Shown one piece after another: positions 31,065 through 45,353 of a stretch of 64,000 bases of DNA. The position numbers and the translations under genes were made by a program. Each line of letters begins with the position of its first letter. Position 1 is the first letter of the stretch. Source of the DNA: Stigmatella ashevillena (GTDB lineage: Bacteria > Myxococcota > Myxococcia > Myxococcales > Myxococcaceae); assembly GCF_028368975.1 (NCBI RefSeq), contig NZ_JAQNDM010000002.1, positions 3,714,425-3,778,424 of the forward strand. Reading direction: 5' to 3'. A model generated the notes under the pieces. The model did no database searches. It worked only from the letters and a program-made list of their open reading frames with translations, and was not told where the DNA came from.

Positions 31065-33566
31065 GTGAAAACCCAACGCTCCCTCCGCACCTACCGCGCC
31101 AAGCGCGACTTCCAGAAGACCTCCGAGCCCGCGCCCAGCGACGAGGTTCCGCGCCGGCGCGGTGAGCCGCCGATCTTCGTCGTGCACAAGCACGATGCCA
31201 CCCAGCTGCACTATGACTTGCGCCTGGAGATCGACGGCGCGTTGGCAAGCTGGGCGCTGCCCAAAGGACCCAGCTTCGACCCGAAGACGAAACGCCTGGC
31301 GGTGGAAACGGAAGACCACCCGCTGGCCTACGCCGGGTTCGAGGGGCGCATTCCAGATGAGGAATATGGCGGAGGAGATTCCCTGCTGTGGGACCGGGGC
31401 ACCTACGAGACGGTGCCGCCCGGAGAGGCCCCCGCGCAGCGGAAGAAGGGCCACCTCACGGTGCAGCTCCATGGGGAGAAGCTCAAGGGCCGCTGGCACC
31501 TCATCCGGACGAAGCCGCAGGGCAAGAAGGCCCAGTGGCTGTGCTTCAAGGCCATGGATGGCGAGGCGGACGCGGACTACGACGTCACCGCCGAGCGTCC
31601 CGAGTCCGTGAAGTCCGGCCGCAGCGCCACCCGGGGGCCCGTGCGCAAAAGAGCGCTCCCGCAGCGCCCCGCCTCAACGGAGCAGATCCTCCAAAGCGTG
31701 TGGCCGCCCATGCTCGCCCAGCTCTCCGTCCCCGAGCAGGCCGATGACGCCACCCACGTCTACGAGGTGAAGTACGACGGCTTTCGCGCCCTGGCCTCTG
31801 TCTCCTCGGGCTCGCTGACGCTGCACAGCCGCAACGGGAATGATCTCTCCGCCCGCTTCCCTCCACTTGCCGAGGCGCTGCGCCAGTTGCGCGTCACCGA
31901 GGCCGTCTTGGACGGAGAGATCATCGCCTTGGACGCGCAGGGCCGCTCCCGCTTCCAGCTGCTCCAGAAGGGGAGCGATGCGGAACAGCGCTTCGTGGCC
32001 TTCGATCTGCTCTGGCTGGATGGGGAAGATCTGCGCCAGCGCCCCCTGGAAGCCCGGCGCGAGCTGCTGGAGCAACTGCTCTCGGGCGTGAAGCCACCGC
32101 TCCAGATCTCCGAGCGCCTGGAGCTGCCCGCGGACAAGGCCCTCGCGAAGGCGCGGAGCCAGGGGTGGGAGGGGCTCATCGCCAAGCGCCGGGGTTCGCC
32201 CTATGTGGGCTCACGCTCCAGTGACTGGCTGAAGCTCAAGGTCCAAGCGGGCCAGGAGGCCGTCATCCTCGGGTACCTGCCCATCAAGAATGCGCGGGCC
32301 CAGGAACAGATCGGCGCGCTGCTGGTGGGCGTGCACGGACCGGACGGCTACCACGACGTGGGCAAGGTGGGCACGGGCTTCTCCTCGGAAACGCGGCGCG
32401 AGCTGCGGGCCCTGCTCGACCGGCAGCGTGTCAAAGCGCCCGTCGCGGTGGATGCACAGCCCCGCCCCGGGGCTGTCTGGGTCAAACCGAAGTACGTGGC
32501 CCAGGTCCACTTCACCGAGTGGACCACCGATGGCCGGCTGCGACACCCGGTGTTCCAGGGCCTGCGCACGGACAAGAAGCCGCAGGAGGTGGTGCGCGAG
32601 CAGGTGCCTTCTCCCAGGAAAGCGGCCACGAAGTCCAAGGCCCCTCGCAAGTCGGGCGCTCGCCGAGCGCCCTCGGCGCTCTCGGCCCGCGCCACACGCG
32701 CGAAGGCCCCCCCGGAGACCGAGGAACTGGCACGGCTGACCCACGGGGAGCGGGTGCTCTTCCCCCAGGAGGGGCTCACCAAGCGGGACGTGTTCGAGTA
32801 CTACCGCGAAGCCGCGCCCCTGCTCCTGCCCGTGCTGGCGAACCGGCCCCTCGCCGTGCAGCAGTGGCCCGCGGGCATCCAGGCCCCTGGCTTCTTCCGG
32901 CACGAGCTCTCCGGCATGCCGGACTGGTTGCCCACGCTGCGCGTGAAGCATGAGGCGAAGATGCTGGAGCACGTGAATGTCCAGAGCCTCGACGCGCTGC
33001 TCTGGCTGGCGAACCAGTCCGCCCTCACCCTGCACATCTGGTCCAGCCATGCGCCAAAGCTCGCGCAGCCCGACTGGGTGGTGTTCGATCTGGATCCGGG
33101 CAAGGGCCGCTGGGAGGATTTAATCTCCGTGGCCACGGCCCTGCGAGAGAAGCTGGAGGAGCTCGGGCTGGAGAGCCTGCCGAAGACTTCCGGCAAGCGC
33201 GGCCTGCACGTGCTCGTCCCCCTGGCCCCAGGACATACCTACGCGCAGACCCAGCGGTTCGCGGAGAAGATCGCCGCCGAGTTGGAAACAGAGCTGGGCA
33301 GCATCGCCACCACCGAGCGCACCATTCAGAAGCGCCGCGGGCGGCTCTATCTGGACGTGGGCCAGAACGGCCGGGGGAAGACCGTGGTGGCGCCCTACTC
33401 GCTCCGCGCCATTCCAGGCGCTCCGTTCTCCGCCCCGCTCTCCTGGAGCGAGGTGACGCGGAAGCTGGATCCCCTGCGCTTCAACCTGAAGACGCTGTCC
33501 CAGCGGCTGGAGGCCGTGGGGGACCTGTTCGCGCAGGCCCTCCAGGGCAAACAAACGCTGGCGTGA
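31065..33566 (+). CDS. ligD: Multifunctional DNA ligase D (phosphoesterase-ligase-polymerase)
   Basis: An 833-residue enzyme of bacterial non-homologous end joining. Order of domains as in the Pseudomonas type: 3'-phosphoesterase (about 30-165; FVVHKHDATQLHYDLRLE with the metal His/Asp residues), ATP-dependent ligase (about 210-510; nucleotidyl-Lys in YEVKYDGFRA, then VLDGEIIALD and WEGLIAKRRGSPY), and an AEP-type primase/polymerase (about 550-815; LWLANQSALTLHIWSSH, WVVFDLDPGKG with the catalytic Asp pair, SGKRGLHVLVPL). A Lys/Arg/Ala-rich linker joins ligase and polymerase. It starts at a GTG with no strong Shine-Dalgarno. All three active sites look intact. Its Ku partner is not in the window. 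Confidence 0.95.
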   Translation: MKTQRSLRTYRAKRDFQKTSEPAPSDEVPRRRGEPPIFVVHKHDATQLHYDLRLEIDGALASWALPKGPSFDPKTKRLAVETEDHPLAYAGFEGRIPDEEYGGGDSLLWDRGTYETVPPGEAPAQRKKGHLTVQLHGEKLKGRWHLIRTKPQGKKAQWLCFKAMDGEADADYDVTAERPESVKSGRSATRGPVRKRALPQRPASTEQILQSVWPPMLAQLSVPEQADDATHVYEVKYDGFRALASVSSGSLTLHSRNGNDLSARFPPLAEALRQLRVTEAVLDGEIIALDAQGRSRFQLLQKGSDAEQRFVAFDLLWLDGEDLRQRPLEARRELLEQLLSGVKPPLQISERLELPADKALAKARSQGWEGLIAKRRGSPYVGSRSSDWLKLKVQAGQEAVILGYLPIKNARAQEQIGALLVGVHGPDGYHDVGKVGTGFSSETRRELRALLDRQRVKAPVAVDAQPRPGAVWVKPKYVAQVHFTEWTTDGRLRHPVFQGLRTDKKPQEVVREQVPSPRKAATKSKAPRKSGARRAPSALSARATRAKAPPETEELARLTHGERVLFPQEGLTKRDVFEYYREAAPLLLPVLANRPLAVQQWPAGIQAPGFFRHELSGMPDWLPTLRVKHEAKMLEHVNVQSLDALLWLANQSALTLHIWSSHAPKLAQPDWVVFDLDPGKGRWEDLISVATALREKLEELGLESLPKTSGKRGLHVLVPLAPGHTYAQTQRFAEKIAAELETELGSIATTERTIQKRRGRLYLDVGQNGRGKTVVAPYSLRAIPGAPFSAPLSWSEVTRKLDPLRFNLKTLSQRLEAVGDLFAQALQGKQTLA

Positions 33567-33593
33567 GGTCTCCTCTCCAGGAGGCTCCGCCGC

Positions 33594-36500
33594 TCAGGGC
33601 CCCAGCGGCAGGGCGAACGCCGTTCCGTTCTGCGTCCCCGTGCGGTAGCTGGTCGGCGCTCCGATGACGAGCGTCGGGGGCACCCCCGTCGCGCCGGGGG
33701 ACAGCGACAGGTCCTGTCCGAGGTTGGAGCGCTCGTTCACGTCCCCCACCGCGATCATCCAGGGCGTGAGCGCGCCCTTCGACTGGGCGCCTCCCGCGTA
33801 GAGGAACACCGCGCCGCCGCCGTCCGAGGCCACCGACGCCCCGGGCGCGCTGATGATGAGGTCCGGGATGCCATCCCCCGTCCAATCCTTGCCGCCTTCC
33901 ATCGCCCGTCCGAAGTTCACCGCGCGCGTGCGGTGCACCAACGTCACCGGGGGCGTCGTGCCTCCCAGGGCGCTCATCAGCTTCTCGCCCGAGGCGGGGA
34001 TGTTCTCGAGCAGCTCCGTCGTCTCGAACAGGAGCACCACGGGCTGCGTCACGCCCTCGAAGGGCACGCTGGAGGCGCTGATGGCCACGCGGTCCTTCTT
34101 GTCATTCAGGAAGTTGCCCGCGCGCGCCATCGCCACGCCGAGCCCCAGGTTGTTGGTGCCCACCTCCGCGTCCGCGGCCACACGCACCCAGGAGGCCTCC
34201 TTGCGGCCACCGCACCGGGTCCCCCCGGCGTCATAGCCCAGAAGGATGATGACGCCCGCGCGGCCCGACTCCGTGTAGCGCCAGCCCACCTCATCGCAGC
34301 CGTCCGCGTTCAGGTCCCCCAACACCGCCGTCGCCGAGGTCTGCCGCACCGTGGAGGGCTGCGTGGAGTAGACCGGATCACACCCCATCGACAGCTTCGC
34401 CAGCGAGCCGTCGTCCGGAGCGCGCCCCAGGAAGACCTCGAAGCCATTGTTGCGCAGTGCGCCGATGTCCTCCTTGCCGTCTCCATTGAAGTCGAAGCCG
34501 CCTACCAGGCCCCGACCAATCTGGCTGCGCCGGCACAGCCCGTCCGTCTCCGGCGTGCACGTGCCGATGACCACCGGCGCCCACAGCCGGTAGGCATCCT
34601 TGAAGGAGCCATCCGCCTGCCCCAGCGACACGACGAGCCCGCCCACGGCCTGGTTGCTGGCCTGGACGCAGCCCGTCTTGGGGGCCGTGGCGTACACCGC
34701 CAGCTCCGCCGTTTGCGAAGTGTTCGGCACGGACAGGGCGGGCGAGCCCACCACCAGATCCTGGCGGCCATCGCCGTTGAAGTCCGTGAACGTCACATCC
34801 GTGCCCACGTTGCGCCCGTTCGTCAGGGGCGCGGTGGCCCCTTCCACCACGAGCGTGGCCGCCGTCTTCCGGGTCACGTCGTAGACATAGGCGCGGCCCG
34901 AGCTGAAGTCGTTTCCACTGTTGGCCATCCCGGCGTAGCCCGGCATGCCGACCAGCGCCATCGTCCGGTTGCCCGCCCCCACCGCCGCCGCCACCACCTC
35001 GCCGAAGCGCTCCACCGCGGGCCTGGCCAGCACGACGTGGGCCTTGCGCGTCCACTCGGCCAGCGAGGCACCCGAGCGGGCGAAGGACTCCACCCGGCCC
35101 ACGAACGCGCCCGCCTCGGAGGTGGAGCGTCCCGAGAAGGCCACCAGCCCCGGGCCTCCCGGGCCACTCCACGGCGCCAGCCCCGCGCCCAGCACGTCCA
35201 GCGCGTTCTGGCCTTGGAGCACCGACAAGGGCTTGTTGAGGATGCTGCCCTGGGTGAGCGTCGCCAGCGGGTACGCCAGCAACCGGCCCGCGTTGCCCAG
35301 CGAGGGAGTCGTGGGGGTGGAGGCATAGGGCGCGCCGAGCACCAGTTCGGGCCCCGGCTGCCTGTCCACGTCCACCACCGCCCAACTGCGGCCTGCATTG
35401 ATGTTGGCCGCCTCACCATAGATCTGCGCGAAGGCCTCGGTCCGGAGCATCTGCACGGGCTTCTCCGGGGGCTCCCCCGTGGGCTGGAAGGCGGAGAGGT
35501 TGAAGAGCAGCACCCCGCCGGAATCCGCGCCCGACCTCACCCCGCCGCTGGAGCTCAAGTCCGGCGAGTTCGCCCGGTCCGACAGCACCATCAACAAGGG
35601 CGGCCGACCACCCTCGCCCGGCACCGAGCCCAGGCGCCAGGTGCCCTCGTTGGAGTCCGCCGTGTTCGACGGCAGGAGGTACACATCCGGGTTGGCCCGG
35701 AAGCGCTGCCCGTCCGCCCGCCCGAAGTGCACCGAGACCGCCGTCAACACCGTGGCGGAGACGCTCCCATCCGAGTTGTACCGGGACACCTTGCTCTGCC
35801 CCGCGATGTCCGCCCGTCCATCTCCGTTGAGGTCCGCCACCACCAGCGTCCGGCCGAAGTCCGTGTTGCTGCGGGACATCGTGCCGCCTTCCTTGGCCAG
35901 ATCGTTCCCGCCCAGCCGGATCGACGGCAGGTCCGGCACGGGCTGTCCCGGTGTCAACGTGAAGATGTCCACCGTGCCACGGCGGCTCACCGACGAGGAG
36001 GGGGCCAGATCGCCCGCGGGGGCACTGGCGATGATGTCCAGGTCCCCATCTCCATCCGCGTCCGCCAGGGCCAGGCCCGCGCTGAACACCCCGCCGCGTG
36101 TGACGCTCGTCAGCGGCGAGCGCATCAACTCCGGGCCACTGCCGCCCCAGCGGTAGAGGTACACCGCCCCCGAGTCCGCGCCGGTGATGTCCGCGCCCGG
36201 AGAGCCCACCGCCAGCTCCGCGCGCCGGTCACCATCGAGGTCTCCCGCCGCCAGCGTCTCGCCAAAGCTCGCCGTGTCCGTCACCCCGGCGAGGACCCAC
36301 GTGGGCTCGCGGGGCAACCCGTCGGCACTGCCCCGGTAGATGAACACCGCACCGCCCGAGGGGCGGCCCAGGTCGCTCTCGCGCCGGCCCACCGCCACAT
36401 CCTCGAAGCCGTCTCCATCGAAGTCCGCGGAGACGAGCGCCGCCACGTCCGTGAGGCGCCCGTGGGGCTGCGAGGGGCGCGTCAGCTCCTCCATCACCCG

Positions 36501-37328
36501 CACGGTGGCCTGGACCTTGTCTCCGGTGAAGGGGTCCACCGCCTCCAGGAGCACGGGCTCCCGTGCCCCCGGCTCGGTGACGATGCGGTTGCCGGACACC
36601 ACGCCGGGGCCGGACACCTTCGTCCACACCACCCGGTCACTGCCTCCGGTGGTGTCCAGCTGCGCGGAGGAGCCCGGCGGCAGCGCCAGCACCTGGGGAT
36701 TGGCGCGCAGCTTCGCGTCCTTGCTCACCTCGAACTCGAGCAGGGCCTCGTCCCCCGTCCGGGTGTCGCGCACGCGAAGCTGATCCAGCCCCTGCCCCGT
36801 CCCGGCCTTGTAGACGCCCTCCGCGGACAACGTGCTGCCTGCCTGGGTGCGCAACAGCGTGAACTCGGCGCCGCCAATCAGCCCCTGGGTGGCCACCTGG
36901 AACGTCGTCCCCGGGCGCACCATGGCGCGGCCCGGGGCCACATCGAACGCCGCCACCACCTGCACCGTGGCGCGCGCGTCCGCCACCTGCACGCCCTGGG
37001 CATTGCCCGAGCACCGCGCATCCTCCACCACCAGCGTGTCCGTGCCCGGCGTGCGCCCCGCGATGAAGCTGCTGCCGATGAGCTGGCCCGAGGACCCTCC
37101 TGCCTCGGCACGGAAGCGGTAGGCGCCGCTGCCGCCCTTGGCGGTGAGGGCCACCGGCTCCAACACTCGCACTTGCGTGGAAGACACGGTGAGCGACAGC
37201 GGGCTCAGCCCCTCGCACGGATCCAGGACGGGCGGCTGCTCCAGGGGAGGCAACTCGTCCTCCGCGTTGCAGGCCAGGGTCAGGAGGGCGGCGAGGGGCA
37301 CCGCGCGAAAGAGCAGTCGGGATGGCAT
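33594..37328 (-). CDS. Very large FG-GAP repeat lipoprotein, last gene of a five-gene operon
   Basis: The start is the ATG of MPSRLLFRAVPLAALLTLAC, giving a 1,244-residue lipoprotein with lipobox LTLAC. An N-terminal Ig-like region (about 50-300) is followed by many FG-GAP/calcium-binding blades spread over the rest: for example DFDGDGFEDVAVG, DLDGDRRAELAVGSPG, DADGDGDLDIIAS, DLNGDGRADIA, DFNGDGRQDLVVGSP, DFNGDGKEDIGAL and DWTGDGIPDLIISAPG, enough for two propellers. Two cysteines in PKTGCVQA and IGTCTPETDGLC suggest disulfides. There is no enzyme motif. It lies 17 bp after a c-heme lipoprotein gene, so it is very probably co-transcribed with it. A surface-exposed binding or scaffolding role is inferred. 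Confidence 0.82.
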   Translation of the reverse strand: MPSRLLFRAVPLAALLTLACNAEDELPPLEQPPVLDPCEGLSPLSLTVSSTQVRVLEPVALTAKGGSGAYRFRAEAGGSSGQLIGSSFIAGRTPGTDTLVVEDARCSGNAQGVQVADARATVQVVAAFDVAPGRAMVRPGTTFQVATQGLIGGAEFTLLRTQAGSTLSAEGVYKAGTGQGLDQLRVRDTRTGDEALLEFEVSKDAKLRANPQVLALPPGSSAQLDTTGGSDRVVWTKVSGPGVVSGNRIVTEPGAREPVLLEAVDPFTGDKVQATVRVMEELTRPSQPHGRLTDVAALVSADFDGDGFEDVAVGRRESDLGRPSGGAVFIYRGSADGLPREPTWVLAGVTDTASFGETLAAGDLDGDRRAELAVGSPGADITGADSGAVYLYRWGGSGPELMRSPLTSVTRGGVFSAGLALADADGDGDLDIIASAPAGDLAPSSSVSRRGTVDIFTLTPGQPVPDLPSIRLGGNDLAKEGGTMSRSNTDFGRTLVVADLNGDGRADIAGQSKVSRYNSDGSVSATVLTAVSVHFGRADGQRFRANPDVYLLPSNTADSNEGTWRLGSVPGEGGRPPLLMVLSDRANSPDLSSSGGVRSGADSGGVLLFNLSAFQPTGEPPEKPVQMLRTEAFAQIYGEAANINAGRSWAVVDVDRQPGPELVLGAPYASTPTTPSLGNAGRLLAYPLATLTQGSILNKPLSVLQGQNALDVLGAGLAPWSGPGGPGLVAFSGRSTSEAGAFVGRVESFARSGASLAEWTRKAHVVLARPAVERFGEVVAAAVGAGNRTMALVGMPGYAGMANSGNDFSSGRAYVYDVTRKTAATLVVEGATAPLTNGRNVGTDVTFTDFNGDGRQDLVVGSPALSVPNTSQTAELAVYATAPKTGCVQASNQAVGGLVVSLGQADGSFKDAYRLWAPVVIGTCTPETDGLCRRSQIGRGLVGGFDFNGDGKEDIGALRNNGFEVFLGRAPDDGSLAKLSMGCDPVYSTQPSTVRQTSATAVLGDLNADGCDEVGWRYTESGRAGVIILLGYDAGGTRCGGRKEASWVRVAADAEVGTNNLGLGVAMARAGNFLNDKKDRVAISASSVPFEGVTQPVVLLFETTELLENIPASGEKLMSALGGTTPPVTLVHRTRAVNFGRAMEGGKDWTGDGIPDLIISAPGASVASDGGGAVFLYAGGAQSKGALTPWMIAVGDVNERSNLGQDLSLSPGATGVPPTLVIGAPTSYRTGTQNGTAFALPLGP

Positions 37329-37345
37329 GCGTTGACCTCGTCGCC

Positions 37346-38896
37346 TCAAGGGTTGGCGCCAGAAGACGCCCAGCGCTGAATGACGTTGATGAGCTGCGGA
37401 TCCAAGGGGCCGTCCGCCGGCATGCGCTGATCCCTCACCGCCTTGACGATGAGCTCGGCGTTCTCTTTCCACAGCGCATAGGTGGCCAGCGACCGCCCAG
37501 GGCCCGAGACGTGGCACTGGGCACACCGCGACTCATGGATGGCCCGGACGTTCTGCTCCCAACTGAGCACCGTCGTCCCGACGGGCTGGTAATCGAAGTG
37601 CACCACCCGGCGCGTCTCGGTGCCATCCAGGAAGCGCGCCACCACGCTCAGCGACTGCCTGCCGGGCTCCAGCGCCGCGAAGGAGAAGGCCCGGGGCGTT
37701 CCGTCCGCCTCGGCGCCCCCCAGGCTGTAGGTGGGCCCCTCCGAGAGGATGTCCGTTCCCCCCAACTGGAAGAGCAGGGCCGCAGGGGCCGGGCCCGCCG
37801 GAGGAACGGCGCGCACCACCAGCCCATCGGCCACCACCTTCTGCCCCTGGTACAGCCCATTGACCCGCGCCACCGCGCCCCAGCTGATCGCCGCGGACTG
37901 CCCGCCCACCACCACCCAGGCACAGCCGCTCTCGTCGGCCGCCAGGAAGCGGAACTCGCGCATGTCCACGCCCATGGCCTCGCCCCACCGGTCCGCGTCC
38001 GCGTCATACGAGAGCAGCTGATCGCTGGACTTCACCCACAGGAACCGCCCCGCCGCCAGGAGCTGCGCGGGCCGCTGGGCGAACTCCACCCGCCGCCACC
38101 GCCGGTCCTTGAGGCGGAGGATCCGCTCCGTGGTGAGCGCCCACAGCTCCGCGCTCTGATCCTTCGAGGCATCCAGGGACACCAGGGACACCAGCGCCTC
38201 GTTCTCGTCCAGGGGAATGTCCGCTGCACGCACCTGATGCACATGGGCCGAGAGGGCCACCGCCACGTAGGGCTGGCCATCGCGCAGCATCCACAGGCCG
38301 GGGGCCGCATCCTCCACCGCGGGCGCCGCCGCCAGCGTGGTGATGCCCGTCAGCGACTCACCGCCCACCTTGAGCTCGGTGAGGTTCCCCTCCTGCAACC
38401 GGTACAGCCCCGAGGTGTGCGCCAGCCACACCGCGCCATCCGCCGTCTGCGCCGTGGCCACCAGCCCGGGCCCCAGCTTCGCCCGCCAGGACGGGGCAAT
38501 CATCCAGCCGGAGTCCGCGATGAACAGGCCCGTATCCGCCTCCACCAGCGCGGTGCGAGGCCCGGTGCGGAACACGGCGCGCACCCGGCCCGGCACCACC
38601 GGATTGCCCGGATGGCTCACCAACTGCGCGCGCGTGCCATCCAGCCGGACGCGGACCGCTTCTCCCGCCGCGGTGACGAAGACGCCGCCTCCCGCTTGAT
38701 CCGCGAAGCCGGAGCCGGGCGCCAGCGCCTGCGCCGAGGCGACATGGGCAGGCTGAAACGGAGCCGGCCGGGGCCGTTCCAGCGGGAGGGAGGAGGACGA
38801 ACAGCCGCCAGTACCTGCGGCAGCTGCCAGGACGAGAAGGATGGGGAGGATGGCCTTCGCCCCACCCTTCTCCCGCGAGAAGGCTGTCATCTTCAT
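37346..38896 (-). CDS. Lipoprotein with a beta-propeller-like sensor region and C-terminal c-type cytochrome domain
   Basis: A 516-residue protein with a signal peptide ending AAGTGGC (lipoprotein). Residues about 60-330 show short repeated strands typical of two-component-regulator or WD-type propellers (GLFIADSGWMIAP, GAVWLAHTSGLYRLQEG, GLWMLRDGQPYVAV, ELWALTTERILRL). The C-terminal 70 residues hold one c-heme site, ESRCAQCHVSGPGR, and a probable distal Met in RDQRMPADGPLDPQ, ending with the usual last helix. It is therefore an outer-envelope redox protein joined to a propeller. It lies 11 bp downstream of the DUF1501 gene and 17 bp before the FG-GAP gene. I know no characterised homologue of this exact fusion. 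Confidence 0.75.
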   Translation of the reverse strand: MKMTAFSREKGGAKAILPILLVLAAAAGTGGCSSSSLPLERPRPAPFQPAHVASAQALAPGSGFADQAGGGVFVTAAGEAVRVRLDGTRAQLVSHPGNPVVPGRVRAVFRTGPRTALVEADTGLFIADSGWMIAPSWRAKLGPGLVATAQTADGAVWLAHTSGLYRLQEGNLTELKVGGESLTGITTLAAAPAVEDAAPGLWMLRDGQPYVAVALSAHVHQVRAADIPLDENEALVSLVSLDASKDQSAELWALTTERILRLKDRRWRRVEFAQRPAQLLAAGRFLWVKSSDQLLSYDADADRWGEAMGVDMREFRFLAADESGCAWVVVGGQSAAISWGAVARVNGLYQGQKVVADGLVVRAVPPAGPAPAALLFQLGGTDILSEGPTYSLGGAEADGTPRAFSFAALEPGRQSLSVVARFLDGTETRRVVHFDYQPVGTTVLSWEQNVRAIHESRCAQCHVSGPGRSLATYALWKENAELIVKAVRDQRMPADGPLDPQLINVIQRWASSGANP

Positions 38897-38907
38897 CTGC
38901 TTCCGGT

Positions 38908-40290
38908 TCAGGCCAGGAGGGGCCGCAGGGGATCCACCCGGGTGATGCTGTAGTCGAGGTTCGCCGAAGCCAGCACCGTGGCGATGATGTGCTCGGGCAG
39001 GATGTTTTCCCCCCGAGGATCCGATGCTCCGGTCCGAAGGTCAAACGTGCCCGGGGACATGCCGATGTCACCGCTGCGGCCCAGCACGAAGTTGTGCTTC
39101 ACCCCTGCCCCCATGAGCAGGCAGCTGTTGGAGAGGTGGTGGTCGCGTCCCCCCGAGGTGTTGATGGTCGGGGTGCGGGAGAACTCGGAGAACACCATGA
39201 TGGTGGTGTGGTCCATGAAGTTGCCCCCGGACGGATGGTTGCTTGCCCGGAGGTCGTCCACCAGCGTGGCCAGCGCGTCGAAGCCGCGGCGCTGGTTGTT
39301 GGCGTGGGTGAGCTGGGTGCCGAAGTGCGTGTCCAGGCCGCCCGTCATGTTGATGGTGACGCACTGGCTGATGCCCTGCTTGAGGGCGGTGGCCACCAGC
39401 GCCGCGCGGCCCGCCTCGTTGTCGTAGGGCCCCGAGCCCGGCAGGCCGTACTTCTGGCGCAGCTCGGCGTGCTCGGGCCGCTCGAAGCGAAACGCGTTGT
39501 CCAGCCGGTTGGAGAGCACCGAGCGCATCTGGTCCTGGCTCGTCGCGTACGTCTGCCCCACCCCACGCGCCCCGTAGGCCGCCGCCTCGCAGGAGATGGG
39601 CTGGCCCCGGAAGTCCAGCAGCTCCTTCTCGATGTCGCTGTCCAGCGTCCGGGTGCTGGGCGACAGCGTCAGCAGCAGGTCCGCCGAGCGGCTCACCCGC
39701 AGGGCGTTGGCCTGGCCGGGGTAGCGGTCATTGTACGTCTCGATGTTGTAGGCGACCGAGGGGATGGGCACCGCGGGCTTGAACTGCCCGACGATCTCCG
39801 TGGCGGTGGACGAGCCGCGCGCCGCGCTGCCGATGGGCTGCTTTCCCGTGAGGAAGTAGCGGTAGCCCACCTCGTGGCCCAGCGTGTTCATGTTGATGCC
39901 GCGCACCACCGACATCAGGTCGAAGTGGTTCGACAGCCGACCCACCGCGGGACCGAAGTGGATGTTGGAGAGGACGCCGTTCTTCTCCGGCACCAACGGC
40001 CGCGACTCGAAGCGCGCGTCGTTGATGAGGTTGTAGCCCGGGAGGATCTGCGTGCTGGTGACCCGCTCCGGCGTGAACACGTCCGGGTCCTTCGGGTCGA
40101 ACGCCAGCAGCTGATCCCAGCCACCGTTGAAGTACACGAAGATGAAGCAGCGGTCCGGCGGCGCCAGGTTCGTCGCGTCGGCGAAGGCACGGAAGGGCAG
40201 GCCTCCGAAGACGCTGGCCCCCATGAAACCGGCGGCGGCCTTGAGGAGGTTGCGGCGTCCAGGGCTGGGGGGAGTTGGGTTCTTCTTCAT
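38908..40290 (-). CDS. Tat-exported DUF1501 family protein (alkaline-phosphatase/sulfatase-like fold)
   Basis: A 460-residue protein with a twin-arginine signal (RRNLLKAAAGFMGASVFGG). The mature part begins RCFIFVYFNGGWDQLLAFDP, the typical DUF1501 opening, and continues with NMTGGLDTHFGTQLTHANN, TTIMVFSEFSRTPTINTSG and GRDHHLSNSCLLMGAG. The closing motif with H-H and the D-x-H are conserved features of this family, which shares the metal-dependent sulfatase/phosphatase fold. The catalytic activity of DUF1501 proteins is unproven. In planctomycetes, DUF1501 genes pair with cytochrome-linked DUF1549 genes, and that pairing recurs in this operon. It is exported folded, suggesting a cofactor or metal is loaded in the cytoplasm. 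Confidence 0.88.
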   Translation of the reverse strand: MKKNPTPPSPGRRNLLKAAAGFMGASVFGGLPFRAFADATNLAPPDRCFIFVYFNGGWDQLLAFDPKDPDVFTPERVTSTQILPGYNLINDARFESRPLVPEKNGVLSNIHFGPAVGRLSNHFDLMSVVRGINMNTLGHEVGYRYFLTGKQPIGSAARGSSTATEIVGQFKPAVPIPSVAYNIETYNDRYPGQANALRVSRSADLLLTLSPSTRTLDSDIEKELLDFRGQPISCEAAAYGARGVGQTYATSQDQMRSVLSNRLDNAFRFERPEHAELRQKYGLPGSGPYDNEAGRAALVATALKQGISQCVTINMTGGLDTHFGTQLTHANNQRRGFDALATLVDDLRASNHPSGGNFMDHTTIMVFSEFSRTPTINTSGGRDHHLSNSCLLMGAGVKHNFVLGRSGDIGMSPGTFDLRTGASDPRGENILPEHIIATVLASANLDYSITRVDPLRPLLA

Positions 40291-40308
40291 GATCGAGTTC
40301 CCCGGGGT

Positions 40309-40989
40309 TCAGTAGGTGATGAAGCGCGCGTCCGTCATCATGGCGATGCACATGACGGCGAAGGCCTGATCTGGCTTCTTGAGGGTCACTGCCCGGGCGG
40401 AGGCCTTGTTGAAGAGCCCCTTCCACTTCGGCAACTCTTCGCCCGCGAGCGGGGCCCCCCAGAAGCGGGTGGAGAGGTAGACGAGCAGCTCTTCCACCTG
40501 CGCATCGCTGAGCGCCTTCATGTCCTTGATGGCGCCGGGCACCGTGCGGCTGAGCACCCGGGCGTTGGGGTCCGTCTGGGTCAGCTCGGCGGCGGCCTGG
40601 TCCAGGCACACCTTCCGGGCCCCATCCTCCATGAACTTGGCGAACACCAGGTTGGGCTCGGTGTTCTCGGTGACGATGTTGGCGTAGTCCGCGCGGCCCA
40701 GGGAGGGCGCCAACGTTTCGAGCTCGTCCCAAGGACGGCCCACCGTCGTCTGAATGGACGTCTTGAGCTGGGCCACGGTGAGCCGGCGCGGGGCACGGCC
40801 CACGGAGCCACCCTGCTCCTCGGGATCCGGCAGGGGGATCACCCCTCCTTCCCCTCCCTCTTCCCCCTCATGTGGGTTGGGGATGGGATCCAAGGTCCCT
40901 TCTTCCGGCGGAGGACGGACGGGCTGTTCATCGTTACTGGAGCAGGCGGGGGCAAGCGCGAGCAGCGCGAGGGCGACGAAGCGGCGCAT
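40309..40989 (-). CDS. Lipoprotein of unknown function, coupled to the DUF1549-type gene
   Basis: A 226-residue protein, MRRFVALALLALAPAC with a clear lipobox. An acidic Pro/Glu/Gly linker follows (EEGTLDPIPNPHEGEEGGEG), then a helical domain RRLTVAQLKTSIQTTVG, the sort of segment found near heme-bearing DUF1587/DUF1592-like proteins. Near the end AFAVMCIAMMTDARFITY resembles the closing motif of DUF1549/DUF1592-type domains. No CxxCH is present. Its ATG overlaps the upstream stop by one base (TGATG), and its stop lies 18 bp before the DUF1501 start. The gene may represent part of a larger domain architecture split into two proteins here. The function is unknown. Confidence 0.7.
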   Translation of the reverse strand: MRRFVALALLALAPACSSNDEQPVRPPPEEGTLDPIPNPHEGEEGGEGGVIPLPDPEEQGGSVGRAPRRLTVAQLKTSIQTTVGRPWDELETLAPSLGRADYANIVTENTEPNLVFAKFMEDGARKVCLDQAAAELTQTDPNARVLSRTVPGAIKDMKALSDAQVEELLVYLSTRFWGAPLAGEELPKWKGLFNKASARAVTLKKPDQAFAVMCIAMMTDARFITY

Positions 40990-42998
40990 CAGTCGATCCT
41001 CCGGTAGGCATTGGTCATCACCAGCGTCTCGATGAGTGACTTCAGACTGTGGTGGTTGCTGGCAAAGTTCTTGGACAACGAGTCGAGGTACAGCTGCTGC
41101 TCCTGGGTCGTCATGGCCCTCCCCAGGAACTCGTTCCAAATGCGCTTCACGGTGCAACGCTCCATGTCGCCCGTCTGCATCATCCGCTGCACCAGCAGGG
41201 CAGGGCCTCCCTCGATGTTCGGCTCCTCGGAGGACGTGCGGTACAGGTACGTCTTGAGCATGCCCAGGGAGTTGGCCCCGTCCTCGTCGAACGCCTGCAT
41301 GACGTAGGCGCCGCACTCGCCGCCGCAGGAGGTGTCCCCGTTCAGGGCGCACGTCTGGCACTTCGGATCAAAGCGCGGGTAGCGCTCCGGCGAGAGGAAC
41401 AGCGAGTTGCGCTCGTCGAAGCGGCCCCAGTGCGCGCCCGTGGGCTCGATGGTGGCGTGGCAGTAGTTGCAGCCGGCGCGCCGCGCGAGGTTGTTGTCGC
41501 GGTGGCTGGGGTCCTCCGGCGGGGGCAGCGGGTCCTTCGACGGCACGAACGTCTTGCAGAGGAAGGCCTCGTAGAACTCGTTCACCCGGGCACGCTGCGT
41601 GGGGAACCGGTACAGGAAGGACGGGGTGGTGAGCACGCCCGAGTGGAACGCGCTGCGCGTGTACTCCTGCCAGGTGCCCGGCTGGTTGTACGCGAGGGCC
41701 GGCACCGTCTCCAAGGGGGCGGGCGCCGTGACGTTGAAGATGCCCACGCCCTGCCGCTGCCGGTAGAACTCGGACAGCGTGCCGTTCACGAACGAGCGGC
41801 GCGTGGTGAGCAGGTTGTAGTAGGGCTCGTCGTTGCGCACCACCGAGTCGGCGATGAGCTCCGGCTCCAGGTTGAAGGCGTCGGTCCGCTCGGTGTACGT
41901 GTTGGCATAGGTGTCCGCCACCCCGCAGCGGCGCATCTGGACGCCGCACCCGCAGCTGCGGTCCGCCGCGAAGCGCGCCGTCTCGCACGACTCCAGCGTC
42001 CACGGGTTGACGTCCCGCTCCTGTGCGTCATAGGCGCACACAGCCACCTGCCCGGCCTGCTGCGCCGTGGGGCTCACGGGGAAAAACGGCAGGGGCTTCA
42101 TCAGATAGCCCTCGCGCTGGACGCAGCCGCGCGGGGCCGCATAGCTGCCCTTGACGCCGTTGCGCAGCGTGGGCTCCAGGGTGCAGCGGTCCAGCCGGAG
42201 CAGCGCCTTGGGGTCCGTCGAGGTGGGGTGCTTGAAGGCCACCACCTTGCCCGAGCCGTCCAGCTCCTCCAGCGTCAACGCGCCGGTGGTGTTCTTGGCC
42301 GGGTCCGGCACACAGGCGTGCGGGTGAAGCTTGCCGTCGCTCAGCCGCCGCATGTCGCAGAAATACAACCGCTTGGCCGACAGCAGCCCCTTGGTCACCG
42401 CCACCTCGCACGAGGTGACGCTGTCATCGGTCGCATCCAGCCGCGTGCAGGCGAAGTAATTGGTGTCGTAGTCGTAGCTCACCGGCAGCGGCACCCCCCG
42501 CTCATCGGCACACTTCTTGTTGGCCGGCTCCGCGTGCGGGTCCTGCGACGTGGCGTTGCAGGCGGACTGCTCGATGTAGCCGTCACACGCCTGTCCGTTC
42601 ACCCCGCGGAGCCCAGTGGCGGTGTTGCCCCGCATGCCGAACGGGTTGTTCAACGCCCCGGTGCCCTGCACCCGGTAGTCGCCGTTGTCGTTGACGCTGG
42701 CCTTGATGTTCGAGCGCAGCAGCGCGCGGTGGAAGCCACGCATCCGCAGGTAGAACTCCTCCGAGCGCATCATCTGCCGGATGTCTTCAGAGGTGATGGA
42801 GCCCTGGGCCTGGATGGCCTGGTACTCCTCGATCGTGGGCGGGCGGCCGAGCAGATCCAACGACAGCTGACGCAGGTGCCGCTGCAAGGGAACCTGCTCA
42901 ATGGGAGCACAAACGGCCTCCTCGGCAGAGGCTGGAGCCACCGCCATAAGCAAGGCTAAAGCCGCGAGGGCGGTGAAGCAGCGACGCGCGCGGGGCAA
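40989..42998 (-). CDS. Exported DUF1549-type protein with a c-heme motif, first gene of the operon
   Basis: A 669-residue protein with signal peptide (CFTALAALALLMAVAPASA). The N-terminal module VPLQRHLRQLSLDLLGRPPT matches the start of DUF1549, a domain common in planctomycete cytochrome proteins. A single CxxCH site is in RRAGCNYCHATIEPTGAHWG, a motif style shared with cytochromes of that group. There are further cysteine clusters (CGCGVQMRRC; CQTCALNGDTSCGGEC), suggesting disulfides or another metal centre. The last third (TRRSFVNGTLSEFYRQRQGV; SEEPNIEGGPALLVQRMMQ; RIWNEFLGRAMTTQEQ) resembles DUF1585/DUF1588-like tails. It leads a tight five-gene unit reading left. The 153-bp upstream gap holds the promoter shared divergently with the DUF420 gene. 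Confidence 0.78.
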   Translation of the reverse strand: MPRARRCFTALAALALLMAVAPASAEEAVCAPIEQVPLQRHLRQLSLDLLGRPPTIEEYQAIQAQGSITSEDIRQMMRSEEFYLRMRGFHRALLRSNIKASVNDNGDYRVQGTGALNNPFGMRGNTATGLRGVNGQACDGYIEQSACNATSQDPHAEPANKKCADERGVPLPVSYDYDTNYFACTRLDATDDSVTSCEVAVTKGLLSAKRLYFCDMRRLSDGKLHPHACVPDPAKNTTGALTLEELDGSGKVVAFKHPTSTDPKALLRLDRCTLEPTLRNGVKGSYAAPRGCVQREGYLMKPLPFFPVSPTAQQAGQVAVCAYDAQERDVNPWTLESCETARFAADRSCGCGVQMRRCGVADTYANTYTERTDAFNLEPELIADSVVRNDEPYYNLLTTRRSFVNGTLSEFYRQRQGVGIFNVTAPAPLETVPALAYNQPGTWQEYTRSAFHSGVLTTPSFLYRFPTQRARVNEFYEAFLCKTFVPSKDPLPPPEDPSHRDNNLARRAGCNYCHATIEPTGAHWGRFDERNSLFLSPERYPRFDPKCQTCALNGDTSCGGECGAYVMQAFDEDGANSLGMLKTYLYRTSSEEPNIEGGPALLVQRMMQTGDMERCTVKRIWNEFLGRAMTTQEQQLYLDSLSKNFASNHHSLKSLIETLVMTNAYRRID

Positions 42999-43151
42999 AT
43001 GGAACCTCCAGGGGGTACGTGATGACTCGTAGTGAACGGTACCTGGAATTCCGACTTTTTACCATTCCCCGGTACTTTGAGAGGGGTACGAGAAACACGC
43101 ACACGACGCCGAGAGATTGCAAGCATGCATGTTTCAAGACATTCAGGAGGC

Positions 43152-43715
43152 ATGTCGAACGCCGCCCCTGCCTCTACGTCGCGAGTCAGCGACAGAACCT
43201 TTTACGTCTTCACAGCGGTGGTCTCGGCGGCGGCCCTCTCGCTGCTGGCGTATCTGCTGTTGATCCGGCGAGGCGGGGCCACGGGCGTGGATCTGCGCTT
43301 CATGCCGTCGGTGAATGCCAGCCTCAACGCGCTCTCGGCGAGCCTGCTGCTCGCGGGCTGGGTGGCCATCCGGCGCAAGGCCCAGCGGGTGCACCAGTAT
43401 CTGATGGTGTCCGCCTTCGCGTCCTCAGCGCTCTTCCTGGTGGGGTATCTGGCGTATCACTACGTGCACGGAGACACGCGGTACGCGGGCAGCGGGCCGT
43501 TGCGCGGGGTGTATCTGGTGATCCTTGCCAGCCACGTGTTGCTGTCCATCCCCGTGCTGCCCATGGCGCTGGTGTCCTTCTACTTCGCCTGGCGCAAGAC
43601 GTTCCGAAGGCACCGTCAGGTGACGCGGTGGCTGGCCCCCATCTGGCTCTATGTGTCGGTGACGGGCGTGGTGGTCTACTTCATGCTGCGCGGCAGCCTG
43701 CCCGCGGTGCCCTGA
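43152..43715 (+). CDS. DUF420 family membrane protein (CtaM/YozB-like)
   Basis: A 187-residue protein starting at MSNAAPAS with a strong CAGGAGG 1-7 bp upstream. Five hydrophobic helices are evident (FYVFTAVVSAAALSLLAYLL; LNALSASLLLAGWVAI; YLMVSAFASSALFLVGYLAY; VYLVILASHVLLSIPVLPMA; APIWLYVSVTGVVVYFML), with histidines near membrane faces (KAQRVHQY, AYHYVHGD, LASHVLLS). In Bacillus and Staphylococcus the DUF420 protein CtaM is needed for aa3-type oxidases. Here it is next to, but divergent from, an operon with two c-heme proteins and 1 kb from a heme-oxygenase operon; the link to heme-copper oxidase maturation is known for the family and only inferred here. Confidence 0.85.
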   Translation: MSNAAPASTSRVSDRTFYVFTAVVSAAALSLLAYLLLIRRGGATGVDLRFMPSVNASLNALSASLLLAGWVAIRRKAQRVHQYLMVSAFASSALFLVGYLAYHYVHGDTRYAGSGPLRGVYLVILASHVLLSIPVLPMALVSFYFAWRKTFRRHRQVTRWLAPIWLYVSVTGVVVYFMLRGSLPAVP

Positions 43716-43722
43716 GGACACT

Positions 43723-44916
43723 TCAGCGCGCGTCCTGCTCCGGGCCGGGCCCCACCTCTTGAGGGACCGTGTCCACGGGCATGTCCTGGGGCAGCATCAC
43801 GGTGAACGCCGAGCCGCGGCCGGGCTGGCTCTTCACTTCGATGGTGCCGCCATGCAGCTCCACCAGCCGGCGCACGCTCGCCAGCCCGACGCCGGAGCCC
43901 GCGATGGAGGTCGGCACATTGCTGGCCCGGTGGAACCGCTCGAAGATGCGCGGCAGATCCTCCGGGGGGATGCCCAGCCCGGAGTCCTCCACACACAGCC
44001 GCACCTGCCGCTCCAGGGCGGTGGTGTCCGCGGCCAGCATCACGAGGATGTCGCCCCCGGCGGGGCTGTACTTCACGGCGTTGCTCAGCAGGTTGTCCAG
44101 CACCCGCTCCAGGCTCTTGGGATCCCAATTGCCCATGAAGTCCTTGCCCTTCACGTTCAGGTGAAAGGCATGGCGGTTGGACATGAGTTCCAGCTCGCGC
44201 ACCTTGGTGTGCACCAGGGCGGCCAGGTCCATCCGCTCCCGGTGCAGCAGTTGCTCACGGCCCCGGGTGGCCACCAGGAACTGATCGATGAGTTCGCCCA
44301 TCCGCATCGCCGCATGGCTGATGCTGGACAACCTCGTGGTGAGCGCCGGCGTCATGACCTCGGCAGGCAACTTGACGCGCAGGAGCTGGGCGTTGAGGGT
44401 GATGATTTGCAGAGGCCCCTTGAGGTCGTGCGTGGCCAGGGAGAACAGCTCGTCCCGGACGGCCAGGGCCTCGCGGGCCTCCCGCTCGGCGTTCTCGGTC
44501 TGGAGCCGCCGCGCTTCCAATGCCCGCGCCAGCCGCACCGTCTCCAGCGCCGCGCGCAAGCTTTGGCGCAGGCGCTCCGGGGTGAAGGAGCCCTTGACGA
44601 GGTAGTCCTGGGCACCGGAGCGCATGGCCTCCACCGCCAGACGCTCGTTGCCGGTCCCGGTGAGGATGACCGCGGCGGGGACGCGCTCGGCACAGCGCCC
44701 GCGCAGGGCGCGCAGCAGCTCCACCCCATTCATGCCCGGCAGATGAAAATCCATCAGCACCACGTCCGGAATGGACGCGGTGGCCCGCTCCAGCCCCTCC
44801 TCCGCGGTGGAGACCTGCTCCACCGTCCAGCGCGTGTCGGGGTCGCGCTCCAAGGCGCGACGAACCACCAATTGGTCAGCGGCGCTGTCATCGACCTGGA
44901 GGACGCGCACACTCAC
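43723..44916 (-). CDS. Receiver-histidine kinase (REC-HisKA-HATPase), last gene of the phytochrome operon
   Basis: A 397-residue cytoplasmic protein with an N-terminal receiver domain (about 1-125: LQVDDSAADQL, phospho-Asp in VVLMDFHLPGMNG, Lys in DYLVKGSF). A short coiled-coil leads to HisKA with phospho-His in LFSLATHDLKGPLQIITL and HATPase with N box LDNLLSNAVKYSP and G boxes (DSGLGIPPED; GSGVGLASVRR). The receiver-first order means the kinase is probably switched by phosphoryl transfer from another protein, fitting a relay from the upstream phytochrome or single-domain regulator. It starts at a GTG whose first bases overlap the TGA of the regulator gene (GTGA). Confidence 0.92.
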   Translation of the reverse strand: MSVRVLQVDDSAADQLVVRRALERDPDTRWTVEQVSTAEEGLERATASIPDVVLMDFHLPGMNGVELLRALRGRCAERVPAAVILTGTGNERLAVEAMRSGAQDYLVKGSFTPERLRQSLRAALETVRLARALEARRLQTENAEREAREALAVRDELFSLATHDLKGPLQIITLNAQLLRVKLPAEVMTPALTTRLSSISHAAMRMGELIDQFLVATRGREQLLHRERMDLAALVHTKVRELELMSNRHAFHLNVKGKDFMGNWDPKSLERVLDNLLSNAVKYSPAGGDILVMLAADTTALERQVRLCVEDSGLGIPPEDLPRIFERFHRASNVPTSIAGSGVGLASVRRLVELHGGTIEVKSQPGRGSAFTVMLPQDMPVDTVPQEVGPGPEQDAR

Positions 44917-45353
44917 CGGGGCGGCTCCTTGTCGCCCGGTAAGAGGGCGGCGGTGAACCAGAACGCCTGGAGCGCCTGCGCCGCGGTCTGGAGCCGGATT
45001 CCCCCGGGCGGCTTGTGCAGGTAGCTGTTGGCACCGCTCGCGTACGCCTCCTCCACGTCCAGCGGCTCCTCGGAGCTGGAGAAGATGATGACGGGGATGG
45101 AGCGCAACTCGGGATCCGCCTTGAGCAAGGAGAGGACCTCCCGGCCCCCGATTCCGGGCAGGTGCAGGTCCAACAACACCAGCGCCGGACGCAGCGCGTT
45201 CACGTGCTCGCCCCGCCGGTGCAGAAAATCCAATGCGCTCTCGCCGCTGTGCACGCGGATGATGGGGGGACTCAAAGGGAGCTGCCGGGAGAGCCGCAGC
45301 AGGGCCTCGGCGTCCGAGTCACTGTCCTCGACCAACAGAAGCGGCCGGGCCAT
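44913..45353 (-). CDS. Single-domain response regulator (Rcp1-like) of the phytochrome operon
   Basis: A 146-residue receiver-only protein starting at MARPLLLVEDSDSDAEALL. The acidic pocket is EDSDSD, the phospho-acceptor Asp is in ALVLLDLHLPGIGG, the switch Thr/Ser is in IPVIIFSSSEEP and the Lys in NSYLHKPPGG. Sequence and length match the Rcp1 type that accepts phosphate from bacterial phytochromes. Its ATG overlaps the stop of bphP by one base (TGATG) and its own stop overlaps the kinase start, so the three are translated in sequence. There is no output domain: it likely passes phosphate on or acts by binding. Confidence 0.93.
   Translation of the reverse strand: MARPLLLVEDSDSDAEALLRLSRQLPLSPPIIRVHSGESALDFLHRRGEHVNALRPALVLLDLHLPGIGGREVLSLLKADPELRSIPVIIFSSSEEPLDVEEAYASGANSYLHKPPGGIRLQTAAQALQAFWFTAALLPGDKEPPR

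What the first reader, a model, noticed from the sequence alone, without database searches (positions are those of the whole stretch)
33594..42998. Five-gene envelope operon joining DUF1549-type c-heme, DUF1501, a propeller-cytochrome lipoprotein and a giant FG-GAP lipoprotein
Seen: five genes in one direction with junctions of -1, 18, 11 and 17 bp; all five products have export signals (Sec, lipoprotein or Tat), and two have CxxCH motifs. Known: DUF1501 and DUF1549 genes pair in planctomycetes, where their role is unresolved. Inference: this could be a redox-dependent assembly or surface system in which heme proteins act on the Tat-exported DUF1501 protein and the FG-GAP protein provides the outside binding surface. 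The combination with a propeller-cytochrome fusion is not one I know to be described, and this is my best candidate for an undescribed system.
Basis: partly seen in the sequence, partly recalled or inferred. Interest (0 to 1): 0.8.

Follow-up and report, generated by a model that had tools for sequence, protein, structure and literature searches.

The report
Conserved myxobacterial heme–DUF1501 envelope operon
Five neighbouring genes that encode exported proteins, two of them probably carrying heme and one built like a phosphatase, form a unit kept across many myxobacteria and related to a widespread but still unexplained gene family first noticed in planctomycetes.

Summary
Five minus-strand genes (42998..33594) have junctions of -1, 18, 11 and 17 bp, and the order is not chance: g1-g2-g3-g4-g5 is colinear in 69 of 81 Myxococcaceae loci; 11 of the other 12 are cut by contig ends. 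The core g1-g2-g3, usually with g4, recurs in 19 selected diverged loci, 11 of them from outside the family.

Corrections: g1 is not simply DUF1549-type. Its C-half matches DUF1592/1588/1585 proteins, and g2's C-terminus their DUF1595 region, so g1+g2 look like a split PSD protein. g3 is a Tat-type DUF1501 protein with an alkaline-phosphatase-superfamily fold (VIA Z 20.9). Its metal-site-like residues are conserved, but by motif spacing a histidine stands where relatives carry their nucleophile (inference). g1 gives a confident model (pLDDT 91.5) without a PDB match.

Most likely this is a split, myxobacterial variant of the PSCyt/PSD–DUF1501 module: a surface-anchored, heme-bearing complex around an exported metalloenzyme acting on an envelope or external polymer. 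Substrate and chemistry are unknown. The ingredients are known; the arrangement is a new variant, testable in Myxococcus xanthus.

The parts
40989..42998 (-). g1: 669-aa Sec-type exported, Cys-rich (24 Cys) protein with one c-heme motif (CNYCH, residues 510-514); DUF1549-like N-terminus, DUF1592/1588/1585-like C-half
   Evidence: CxxCH in 80 of 80 complete family proteins (window included) and in 19 of 19 diverged loci
40309..40989 (-). g2: 226-aa putative lipoprotein, C-terminus DUF1595 (PSD5)-like
   Evidence: no Pfam hit at E<=5 on its own
38908..40290 (-). g3: Tat-type DUF1501 protein, alkaline-phosphatase-superfamily fold
37346..38896 (-). g4: 516-aa putative lipoprotein with a C-terminal mono-heme c domain (CAQCH, conserved later MP) and a putative beta-propeller before it
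33594..37328 (-). g5: 1244-aa FG-GAP (integrin-alpha-type repeat) putative lipoprotein
42999..43151 (.). divergent intergenic region between g1 and DUF420, with the ribosome-binding site of g1
   Evidence: sequence; distance to the divergent DUF420 frame about 93-329 bp across loci; the DUF420 start at 43152 is my choice
43152..43715 (+). divergent neighbour: DUF420 membrane protein; conserved neighbour, not claimed as part of the system
   Evidence: Pfam 144 bits (given the longer frame 43032-43715); divergent in 75 of 78 family loci with room

Best explanation
The operon encodes a myxobacterial, split variant of the planctomycete-type PSCyt/PSD-DUF1501 module: a cell-envelope complex built around an exported metalloenzyme. 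g3 folds in the cytoplasm, leaves by Tat (which fits a protein loaded with metal before export) and has the alkaline-phosphatase-superfamily fold. g1 and g2 are two parts of a PSD-type partner that dock on g3 and bring one c-heme. g4 is a lipid-anchored heme protein that exchanges electrons with g1. g4's putative propeller and the FG-GAP lipoprotein g5 hold the complex at the membrane and bind a polymeric ligand (exopolysaccharide, envelope glycan or prey material), on which g3 acts, gated or driven by the heme pair. Shown: gene set, conserved order, conserved heme motifs, conserved DUF1501 residues, predicted g3 fold, relation of g1/g2 to PSD proteins. Inferred: co-transcription, complex formation, heme attachment, electron transfer, metal, location, ligand and chemistry.
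For: Colinear 5-gene set in 69 of 81 family loci; junction medians -1 (79 loci), 17 (78), 12 (74), 28 (69). g1-g2-g3 consecutive in 17 of 19 diverged loci, the other two ending at contig ends; g4 directly upstream of g1 by profile in 14 of 17 with room, and by eye also in L206. Sequence distances of g1, g2, g3 go together over 35 loci, r 0.94-0.95; 0.70-0.83 within 17 diverged loci (shared descent alone also gives correlation). CxxCH in g1 80/80 and 19/19; CxxCH plus MP in g4 73/73. Profile-profile: g1 C-half to DUF1592-type proteins prob 97.9, E 3e-13; g2 to their DUF1595 region prob 95.8, E 8e-9. g3 model pLDDT 84.5; AP superfamily Z 20.9, rmsd 3.1, 244 aligned. D320, H322, D383, H384 in 40/40 and D59 in 39/40 aligned DUF1501 sequences. 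Precedent: a cytochrome domain of Cbp2D, a protein also annotated with DUF1587, reduces LPMOs in vitro (PMC8981238, passages).
Against: No expression, interaction, metal, heme or activity data. The nucleophile-equivalent position seems to hold His139, so an ordinary phosphatase or sulfatase mechanism is doubtful (spacing inference). D59 is not general in DUF1501: the seven DUF1501 proteins of the L003 type listed have Arg there. A sequence-profile comparison with NPP-type enzymes found no match. g2's N-terminus shows no significant DUF1587 match, so the 'split' is shown only for C-terminal parts. In G015 the diverged copy's g1 is closer to the diverged set (0.41 against 0.33), but its g2 and g3 are not (0.27 against 0.29; 0.35 against 0.37). 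No polysaccharide gene was recognised in the operon; g5 is detected in only 2 of 19 diverged loci; L209 and L218 have no g4-like neighbour by profile, and L113 has no CxxCH frame on the gene strand in the 2.5 kb after g3. The g4 piece of L222 has CxxxCH, not CxxCH. g4's propeller is weakly supported.
Confidence: 0.5

Rival explanations
1. Electron delivery is the main job: g1 and g4 pass electrons to an extracellular oxidative enzyme encoded elsewhere (as the Cbp2D cytochrome domain does for LPMOs in vitro), and DUF1501 is an accessory that prepares or binds the polymer.
For: Two conserved mono-heme motifs; PSD-type domains occur with a carbohydrate-binding module and cytochromes in Cbp2D and with carbohydrate-binding modules in Verrucomicrobia.
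Against: No further gene family is shared by more than 3 of 13 diverged neighbourhoods in my clustering, so no oxidase is a fixed neighbour. DUF1501 also stands beside DUF1800 proteins (L001 by Pfam, L004 by eye) in whose stretches held here no CxxCH was found.
Confidence: 0.17
2. One reading: a redox-dependent assembly system in which the heme proteins mature or regulate the Tat-exported DUF1501 protein and g5 is the outside binding surface.
For: Same gene set and conserved order; g1 is Cys-rich (24 Cys, many invariant).
Against: DUF1501 proteins in the same genome stand beside partners without a CxxCH in the stretches held (L001, L004); g5 was not found in 17 of 19 diverged loci. Nothing shows heme acting on g3.
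Confidence: 0.15
3. Sensor or adhesin: heme and propellers form a redox or gas sensor at the surface, g3 is a catalytically dead AP-fold binder, g5 is an adhesin.
For: The canonical Thr/Ser/Cys nucleophile motif seems absent from g3; FG-GAP and putative propeller domains suit binding.
Against: D320, H322, D383 and H384 are kept even in the DUF1501 proteins L001 and L003, 26 and 21% identical to g3, which is not expected of a dead enzyme; the histidine kinase upstream is kept in only 38 of 77 loci.
Confidence: 0.1
4. Mere neighbours: conserved backbone order without shared function.
For: Flanking DUF420 is also conserved (75 of 78), so backbone order is well kept in this family.
Against: The g4-g1-g2-g3 set recurs as a unit in second-type copies and in other families, with other flanks and another order.
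Confidence: 0.03

Closest known systems
PSCyt/PSD proteins and their neighbour families in Verrucomicrobia/Planctomycetes (He et al. 2017, PMC5615132, passages; that the neighbours are DUF1501 and DUF1552 is my reading of the search listing and recall; the 'DUF1501 module' of Kamneva et al. 2012 seen only as cited in PMC4452313 and PMC4960237)
   Same: DUF1501-family protein encoded beside PSCyt/PSD proteins; function unknown; WD40 among the extra domains of PSCyt genes
   Different: PSD part spread over g1 and g2; g1 mixes a DUF1549-like N-terminus with a DUF1592/1588/1585-like C-half; heme lipoprotein g4 and FG-GAP g5 are separate genes; all PSD hits are below Pfam cut-offs
DUF1592-type proteins of the same genus (L225-L236), followed in the four loci read (L225, L226, L234, L236) by an RR-bearing reading frame that I take for DUF1552-type
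   Same: C-half of g1 and C-terminus of g2 are homologous to them
   Different: Single chain with one CxxCH; their neighbour was judged by eye only
DUF1800-DUF1501 pairs (beside bacterial chitin synthases, PMC5122149, passages; L001 and L004 here)
   Same: Twin-arginine-type DUF1501 protein encoded next to a partner
   Different: Partner is DUF1800 (L001 435 bits; L004 by eye), no CxxCH in the stretches held; g1 and g2 give no DUF1800 hit
Alkaline phosphatase superfamily, nucleotide pyrophosphatase/phosphodiesterase branch
   Same: Fold of g3 (Z 20.9 to 7mw8_C); D, DxH and DH residues conserved
   Different: No recognisable Thr/Ser/Cys nucleophile motif; DxH spacing differs from the DxxxH that I recall for NPP
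Cbp2D of Cellvibrio japonicus (PMC8981238, passages)
   Same: PSD-type domain (DUF1587) with c-type cytochrome in an exported protein
   Different: Multidomain protein with a carbohydrate-binding module; the paper is not among the ten that hold the term DUF1501

Membership tests
PSCyt/PSD-DUF1501 module | DUF1501 gene adjacent to a PSCyt/PSD-type gene | tested here: met
PSCyt/PSD-DUF1501 module | PSCyt/PSD domains above Pfam gathering cut-offs | tested here: not met
   all five hits of g1 below cut-off, g2 none; only profile-profile links. Hence filed as a variant, not as a plain member
PSCyt/PSD-DUF1501 module | c-heme motif CxxCH in the PSCyt part | tested here: met
   g1 80/80 and 19/19, g4 73/73 in the family; one diverged g4 piece (L222) has CxxxCH
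DUF1592-DUF1552 unit | single chain with DUF1587/1595/1592/1588/1585 and a DUF1552 partner | tested here: not met
   two chains; partner g3 is DUF1501 (99 bits) with DUF1552 only 16 bits, below its cut-off 30
DUF1800-DUF1501 pair | DUF1800 partner | tested here: not met
   no DUF1800 hit for g1 or g2 at E<=5
Alkaline phosphatase superfamily | alkaline-phosphatase-like fold | tested here: met
   predicted model; best Foldseek E 3.9e-4, TM-score only 0.36; Z 20.9
Alkaline phosphatase superfamily | bimetal-site Asp/His set | tested here: inconclusive
   D59 39/40; D320, H322, D383, H384 40/40; equivalence to metal ligands inferred, no residue superposition was available
Alkaline phosphatase superfamily | Thr/Ser/Cys nucleophile at a helix start, nine positions before the T of TG | tested here: inconclusive
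   that spacing gives His139 in g3 (helix 139-148); register not verified by superposition
c-type cytochromes | covalent heme | not testable with these tools
   motif only
Porin-multiheme extracellular electron conduit | multiheme cytochrome plus porin | tested here: not met
   one CxxCH each in g1 and g4, none in the other three; no porin family among the Pfam hits of the five proteins

The most novel reading that the evidence does not exclude
DUF1501 proteins are a new catalytic branch of the alkaline phosphatase superfamily in which a histidine replaces the covalent nucleophile, and in this operon the metal site is wired to a dedicated heme pair (g1, g4) through a PSD partner of unsolved fold: a redox-coupled or oxidative metalloenzyme made from a hydrolase fold, acting on surface polymers.
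Probability: 0.15. Interest if true: 0.85.

Novelty: new variant of a known kind. Interest (0 to 1): 0.57.

Why it matters
PSCyt/PSD and DUF1501 genes have been named for years without a function (stated in PMC5615132 and PMC4452313, passages), and many Verrucomicrobia genomes carry large numbers of PSCyt genes (PMC5615132). That Planctomycetes do too, and that both groups are harder to manipulate, is my recall. Here a related set is one conserved operon in 81 of 96 Myxococcaceae genomes searched, one per species, including a Myxococcus xanthus strain (L196), where gene removal and motility, matrix, predation and development assays are routine (recall). One g1 match was found in G078, the genome whose contig length agrees with that strain. 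It also offers a confident model of a PSD-type protein without a counterpart in the PDB search, and a concrete catalytic question (His139).

Tried and rejected
Sequence search of solved structures: g3 best E 0.62, g1 none at E<=5. Profile alignment of g3-type DUF1501 with NPP-type proteins of the genus: no match, so active-site residues were compared by motif spacing only. g2 N-terminus against the DUF1587 part of DUF1592 proteins: not significant. g1 against g2: no detectable relation. g1 N- against C-terminus: weak (prob 30, E 5e-4). A sigma-54-type pattern in the window: 0 matches; a looser one upstream of g1 in 9 of 80 loci, not pursued. Plasmid records: no tblastn match for g1 or g3 at 1e-5. 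Foldseek/VIA on g1: best E 3.2 and best Z 5.6 (phycobilisome linker), too weak to name a fold, and an unlisted fold is not excluded. Histidine kinase and DNA-ligase neighbours rejected as parts: kinase in 38 of 77, ligase in 32 of 65 loci with room.

Diverged loci were a selection: I fetched 19 (11 from 9 of the 14 genomes outside the family with a match, and 8 second-type copies inside the family). The five other outside genomes had only weak matches (best E 9e-8 to 4e-5); further second-type copies in the family were not fetched. The list of matches was cut. L217 and L224 were left out of the g1 alignment A8, and L217 and L211 out of the g3 alignment A7; L222 was left out of the g4 alignment A9.

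One search also checked the DUF1800 stretches, the L222 piece and L113.
Full report
What is there. On the minus strand, 42998..33594, five reading frames follow each other with gaps of -1, 18, 11 and 17 bp: g1 (669 aa, Sec-type signal, one CNYCH), g2 (226 aa, putative lipoprotein), g3 (460 aa, twin-arginine signal, DUF1501 99 bits), g4 (516 aa, putative lipoprotein, one CAQCH near the C-terminus) and g5 (1244 aa, putative lipoprotein, FG-GAP 138 bits). Signals were read by eye and from conservation. The window is part of a 10.95-Mb genome in a family whose named members include Myxococcus, Corallococcus, Archangium, Pyxidicoccus, Citreicoccus and Hyalangium; the same-genus genome G006 has the contig length of Hyalangium versicolor (L179), so the host is a Myxococcaceae member close to Hyalangium. 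I suspect Stigmatella from genome G002, whose contig of 10,260,756 bases has the length I recall for S. aurantiaca; that is recall, not a result.

Is it more than chance. In 96 genomes of the family, g1 has a match in 84; 81 of these carry the long main-type match (in G050 split over two contigs). I took stretches around all 81 (the window plus L048-L127). All five genes are present, on one strand and in one order, in 69 of 81; 11 of the other 12 end at a contig end within 130 bases of the last gene found, and one (L113, a metagenome-assembled genome by its named twin L177) has 2.5 kb after g3 without g4. Junctions are tight: medians -1 bp (79 loci, range -1 to 1), 17 (78, 11 to 21), 12 (74, -1 to 208) and 28 (69, -4 to 95) (starts chosen by a heuristic; window counted). 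The heme motif is in 80 of 80 complete g1 proteins and in 73 of 73 g4 proteins, there always followed by MP; the twin arginine is in 75 of 75 g3 proteins. The 12 family genomes without any match have 2.1 to 6.9 Mb; holders have 4.8 to 13.8 Mb, some of them incomplete.

Beyond the family. A profile search of the 195 genomes returned for the phylum (400 asked) found matches in 99, of which 14 lie outside the family. I fetched 19 diverged loci: 11 from nine of those outside genomes and eight second-type copies inside the family. g1-g2-g3 are consecutive in 17; L206 and L213 end at contig ends before g3 or g2. g4 lies next to g1 in 14 of 17 loci with room, but upstream of it (order g4-g1-g2-g3); in one of these, L222, it is a piece with CxxxCH. 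By eye L206 also has a heme-motif protein there, while L209 and L218 do not. An FG-GAP protein is detected in only two (L207, L211), divergently oriented. In my clustering no other gene family is shared by more than 3 of 13 diverged neighbourhoods. So the core is g4+g1+g2+g3, and the position of g4 and the addition of g5 in line are marks of the Myxococcaceae operon. Sequence distances of g1, g2 and g3 go together (r 0.94-0.95 over 35 loci; 0.70-0.83 within 17 diverged loci), as expected for a co-inherited unit, though shared descent alone also gives correlation. Of five genomes compared with both types, the copy in G015 is less clear: only its g1 is closer to the diverged set.

What the proteins are. 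g1: Pfam gives only sub-threshold hits, a mosaic of DUF1549 (25-97), DUF1592 (364-412), DUF1588 (471-529), DUF1585 (598-664) and DUF1553 (613-667). Against DUF1592-type proteins of the genus (A6, 12 sequences) its C-half aligns with probability 97.9, E 3e-13, and g2 aligns with their DUF1595 part with 95.8, E 8e-9. g1 and g2 show no relation to each other. So g2 and g1 carry parts that belong to the front and the back of one chain elsewhere. g2's N-terminal likeness to DUF1587 was tested and is not significant. Across 52 g1-type sequences the CxxCH and a further set of cysteines are invariant. The g1 model is confident (pLDDT 91.5, pTM 0.85) but no PDB chain matches (Foldseek best E 3.2; VIA best Z 5.6, phycobilisome linkers); this does not prove a new fold.

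g3: the model (pLDDT 84.5) matches the alkaline phosphatase superfamily, best the nucleotide pyrophosphatase/phosphodiesterases (7mw8_C, Z 20.9, rmsd 3.1 over 244 residues; Foldseek best E 3.9e-4 to a carrageenan sulfatase with TM-score 0.36). In 40 aligned DUF1501 sequences, D320, H322, D383 and H384 are invariant and D59 is in 39; these look like the metal site of that superfamily, by inference. The exception at D59 is L003, and all seven DUF1501 proteins of the L003 type listed have Arg there. NPP-type enzymes of the same genus show T-x-P-x-H-x4-TG in 6 of 11 and T-x-(P/A)-x-H-x4-TG in 9 of 11 (that the first T is the nucleophile is established for NPP, recalled); it stands nine positions before the T of TG. 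The same spacing in g3 lands on H139 (39 of 40), where the predicted helix 139-148 starts. The H-x8-(T/S)(G/S) pattern also appears in DUF1501 proteins of other partner types: in 19 of the 22 proteins listed, of 24 loci given to that script; four of the 19 are g3 itself and its orthologues, and many of the rest are orthologues of each other. The residue before it varies (A/T/G/S in the g3 type). I could not superpose coordinates, so this stays a hypothesis.

g4: 28 of 31 members match a cbb3-type cytochrome c domain at E<=0.1 (17.3 bits for the window's, below its cut-off of 27). The beta-propeller is only weakly supported: a profile hit to 3v9f, a hybrid two-component sensor structure (E 0.016; that it is a propeller is recalled), and single-member hits to PQQ_2, Reg_prop, WD40 and RCC1_2. 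g5 is an FG-GAP protein; nothing further was tested.

Other DUF1501 genes in this genome. Of four DUF1501 places, L001 follows a DUF1800 gene (435 bits); L004 follows a gene that I judge DUF1800-like by eye; neither partner stretch held here has a CxxCH. L003 is a sister arrangement: a DUF1553-like gene (28.4 bits, cut-off 28.5), a DUF1501 gene and a lipoprotein with a PSCyt1 domain (30.2 bits, cut-off 22) and one CxxCH. So DUF1501 is the constant member and the partner varies, apparently with or without heme.

Neighbourhood. A DUF420 membrane-protein gene (Pfam 144 bits) stands divergently next to g1 in 75 of 78 family loci with room, while the histidine kinase upstream is kept in 38 of 77 and the ligase downstream in 32 of 65. 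From recall, DUF420 proteins include an oxidase-maturation factor (CtaM); I attach no weight to that. No promoter-like site was found and terminator-like sites are at chance level in 33000-44000.

How it most likely works. A Tat-type AP-fold protein with conserved Asp/His residues is best read as a metalloenzyme; the PSD parts g1/g2, encoded directly before it wherever the contig allowed a look, are the likely partner; g1 and g4 each bring one heme motif and could pass electrons; lipid anchors and repeat domains of g4 and g5 suit a surface complex that binds a polymer. Chemistry, substrate and electron direction are unknown. The nearest experimental precedent is Cbp2D of Cellvibrio japonicus, annotated with a DUF1587 domain, whose isolated cytochrome domain reduces LPMOs in vitro (PMC8981238, passages). 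For Verrucomicrobia, a role of PSCyt proteins in carbohydrate metabolism has been proposed without proof (PMC5615132, passages).

What is known. Ten papers of the library contain the term DUF1501. I read passages of six (PMC5122149, PMC4452313, PMC4982196, PMC5615132, PMC4960237, PMC5587647); four were seen only as listings (PMC5418858, PMC5888151, PMC6329079, PMC6653060). Of the papers found by the DUF1592-type terms I also read single passages of PMC6004670 and PMC7789669, which list such domains without function, and only the listing of PMC2754498. The single paper with both DUF1501 and Myxococcus xanthus concerns other matters in its passages. None of the passages describes this operon. 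Searches used for this statement; subscription papers are mostly not held, and Kamneva et al. 2012 was not available. Planctomycete DUF1501 genes near WD40 genes are reported (PMC5587647, passage), so heme, propeller and DUF1501 as a theme is not wholly new.

Verdict. Real, widely conserved and, as far as these searches show, uncharacterised; a new variant of the PSCyt/PSD-DUF1501 kind rather than a new category. Its main value is that it puts an old unexplained family into a tractable host.

Noticed in passing
window 43152-43715 (+): A DUF420 membrane-protein gene is divergent to the operon and is kept there in 75 of 78 family loci with room.
   Followed up: partly
L003 (G000:C2:7511464-7515534): Sister arrangement in the same genome: DUF1553-like gene, DUF1501 gene and a lipoprotein with a PSCyt1 heme domain, one after the other.
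   Followed up: partly
L222 (G052:C381): Two g1-like genes in one locus, at 250-2220 and 4486-6252, on either side of g2 and g3; the g4-like piece before them has CxxxCH instead of CxxCH.
   Followed up: no
L207:4329-5531 and L210:3454-4740: Related lipoproteins that look like calcineurin-type metallophosphatases (by eye) lie near the diverged clusters of two genomes from different families.
   Followed up: no
L176 (BNCN01000002.1): The record is titled 'Comamonas sp. KCTC 72670', yet it carries the myxobacterial g1 (59%) on a contig as long as that of G066, a genome in the same genus group as the one that matches Myxococcus xanthus AM003: the title is probably wrong.
   Followed up: no
window 43723-47596 (-): Upstream lie a response-regulator/histidine-kinase hybrid, a further response regulator and a protein that looks like a bacteriophytochrome kinase (the last two by eye).
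   Followed up: no
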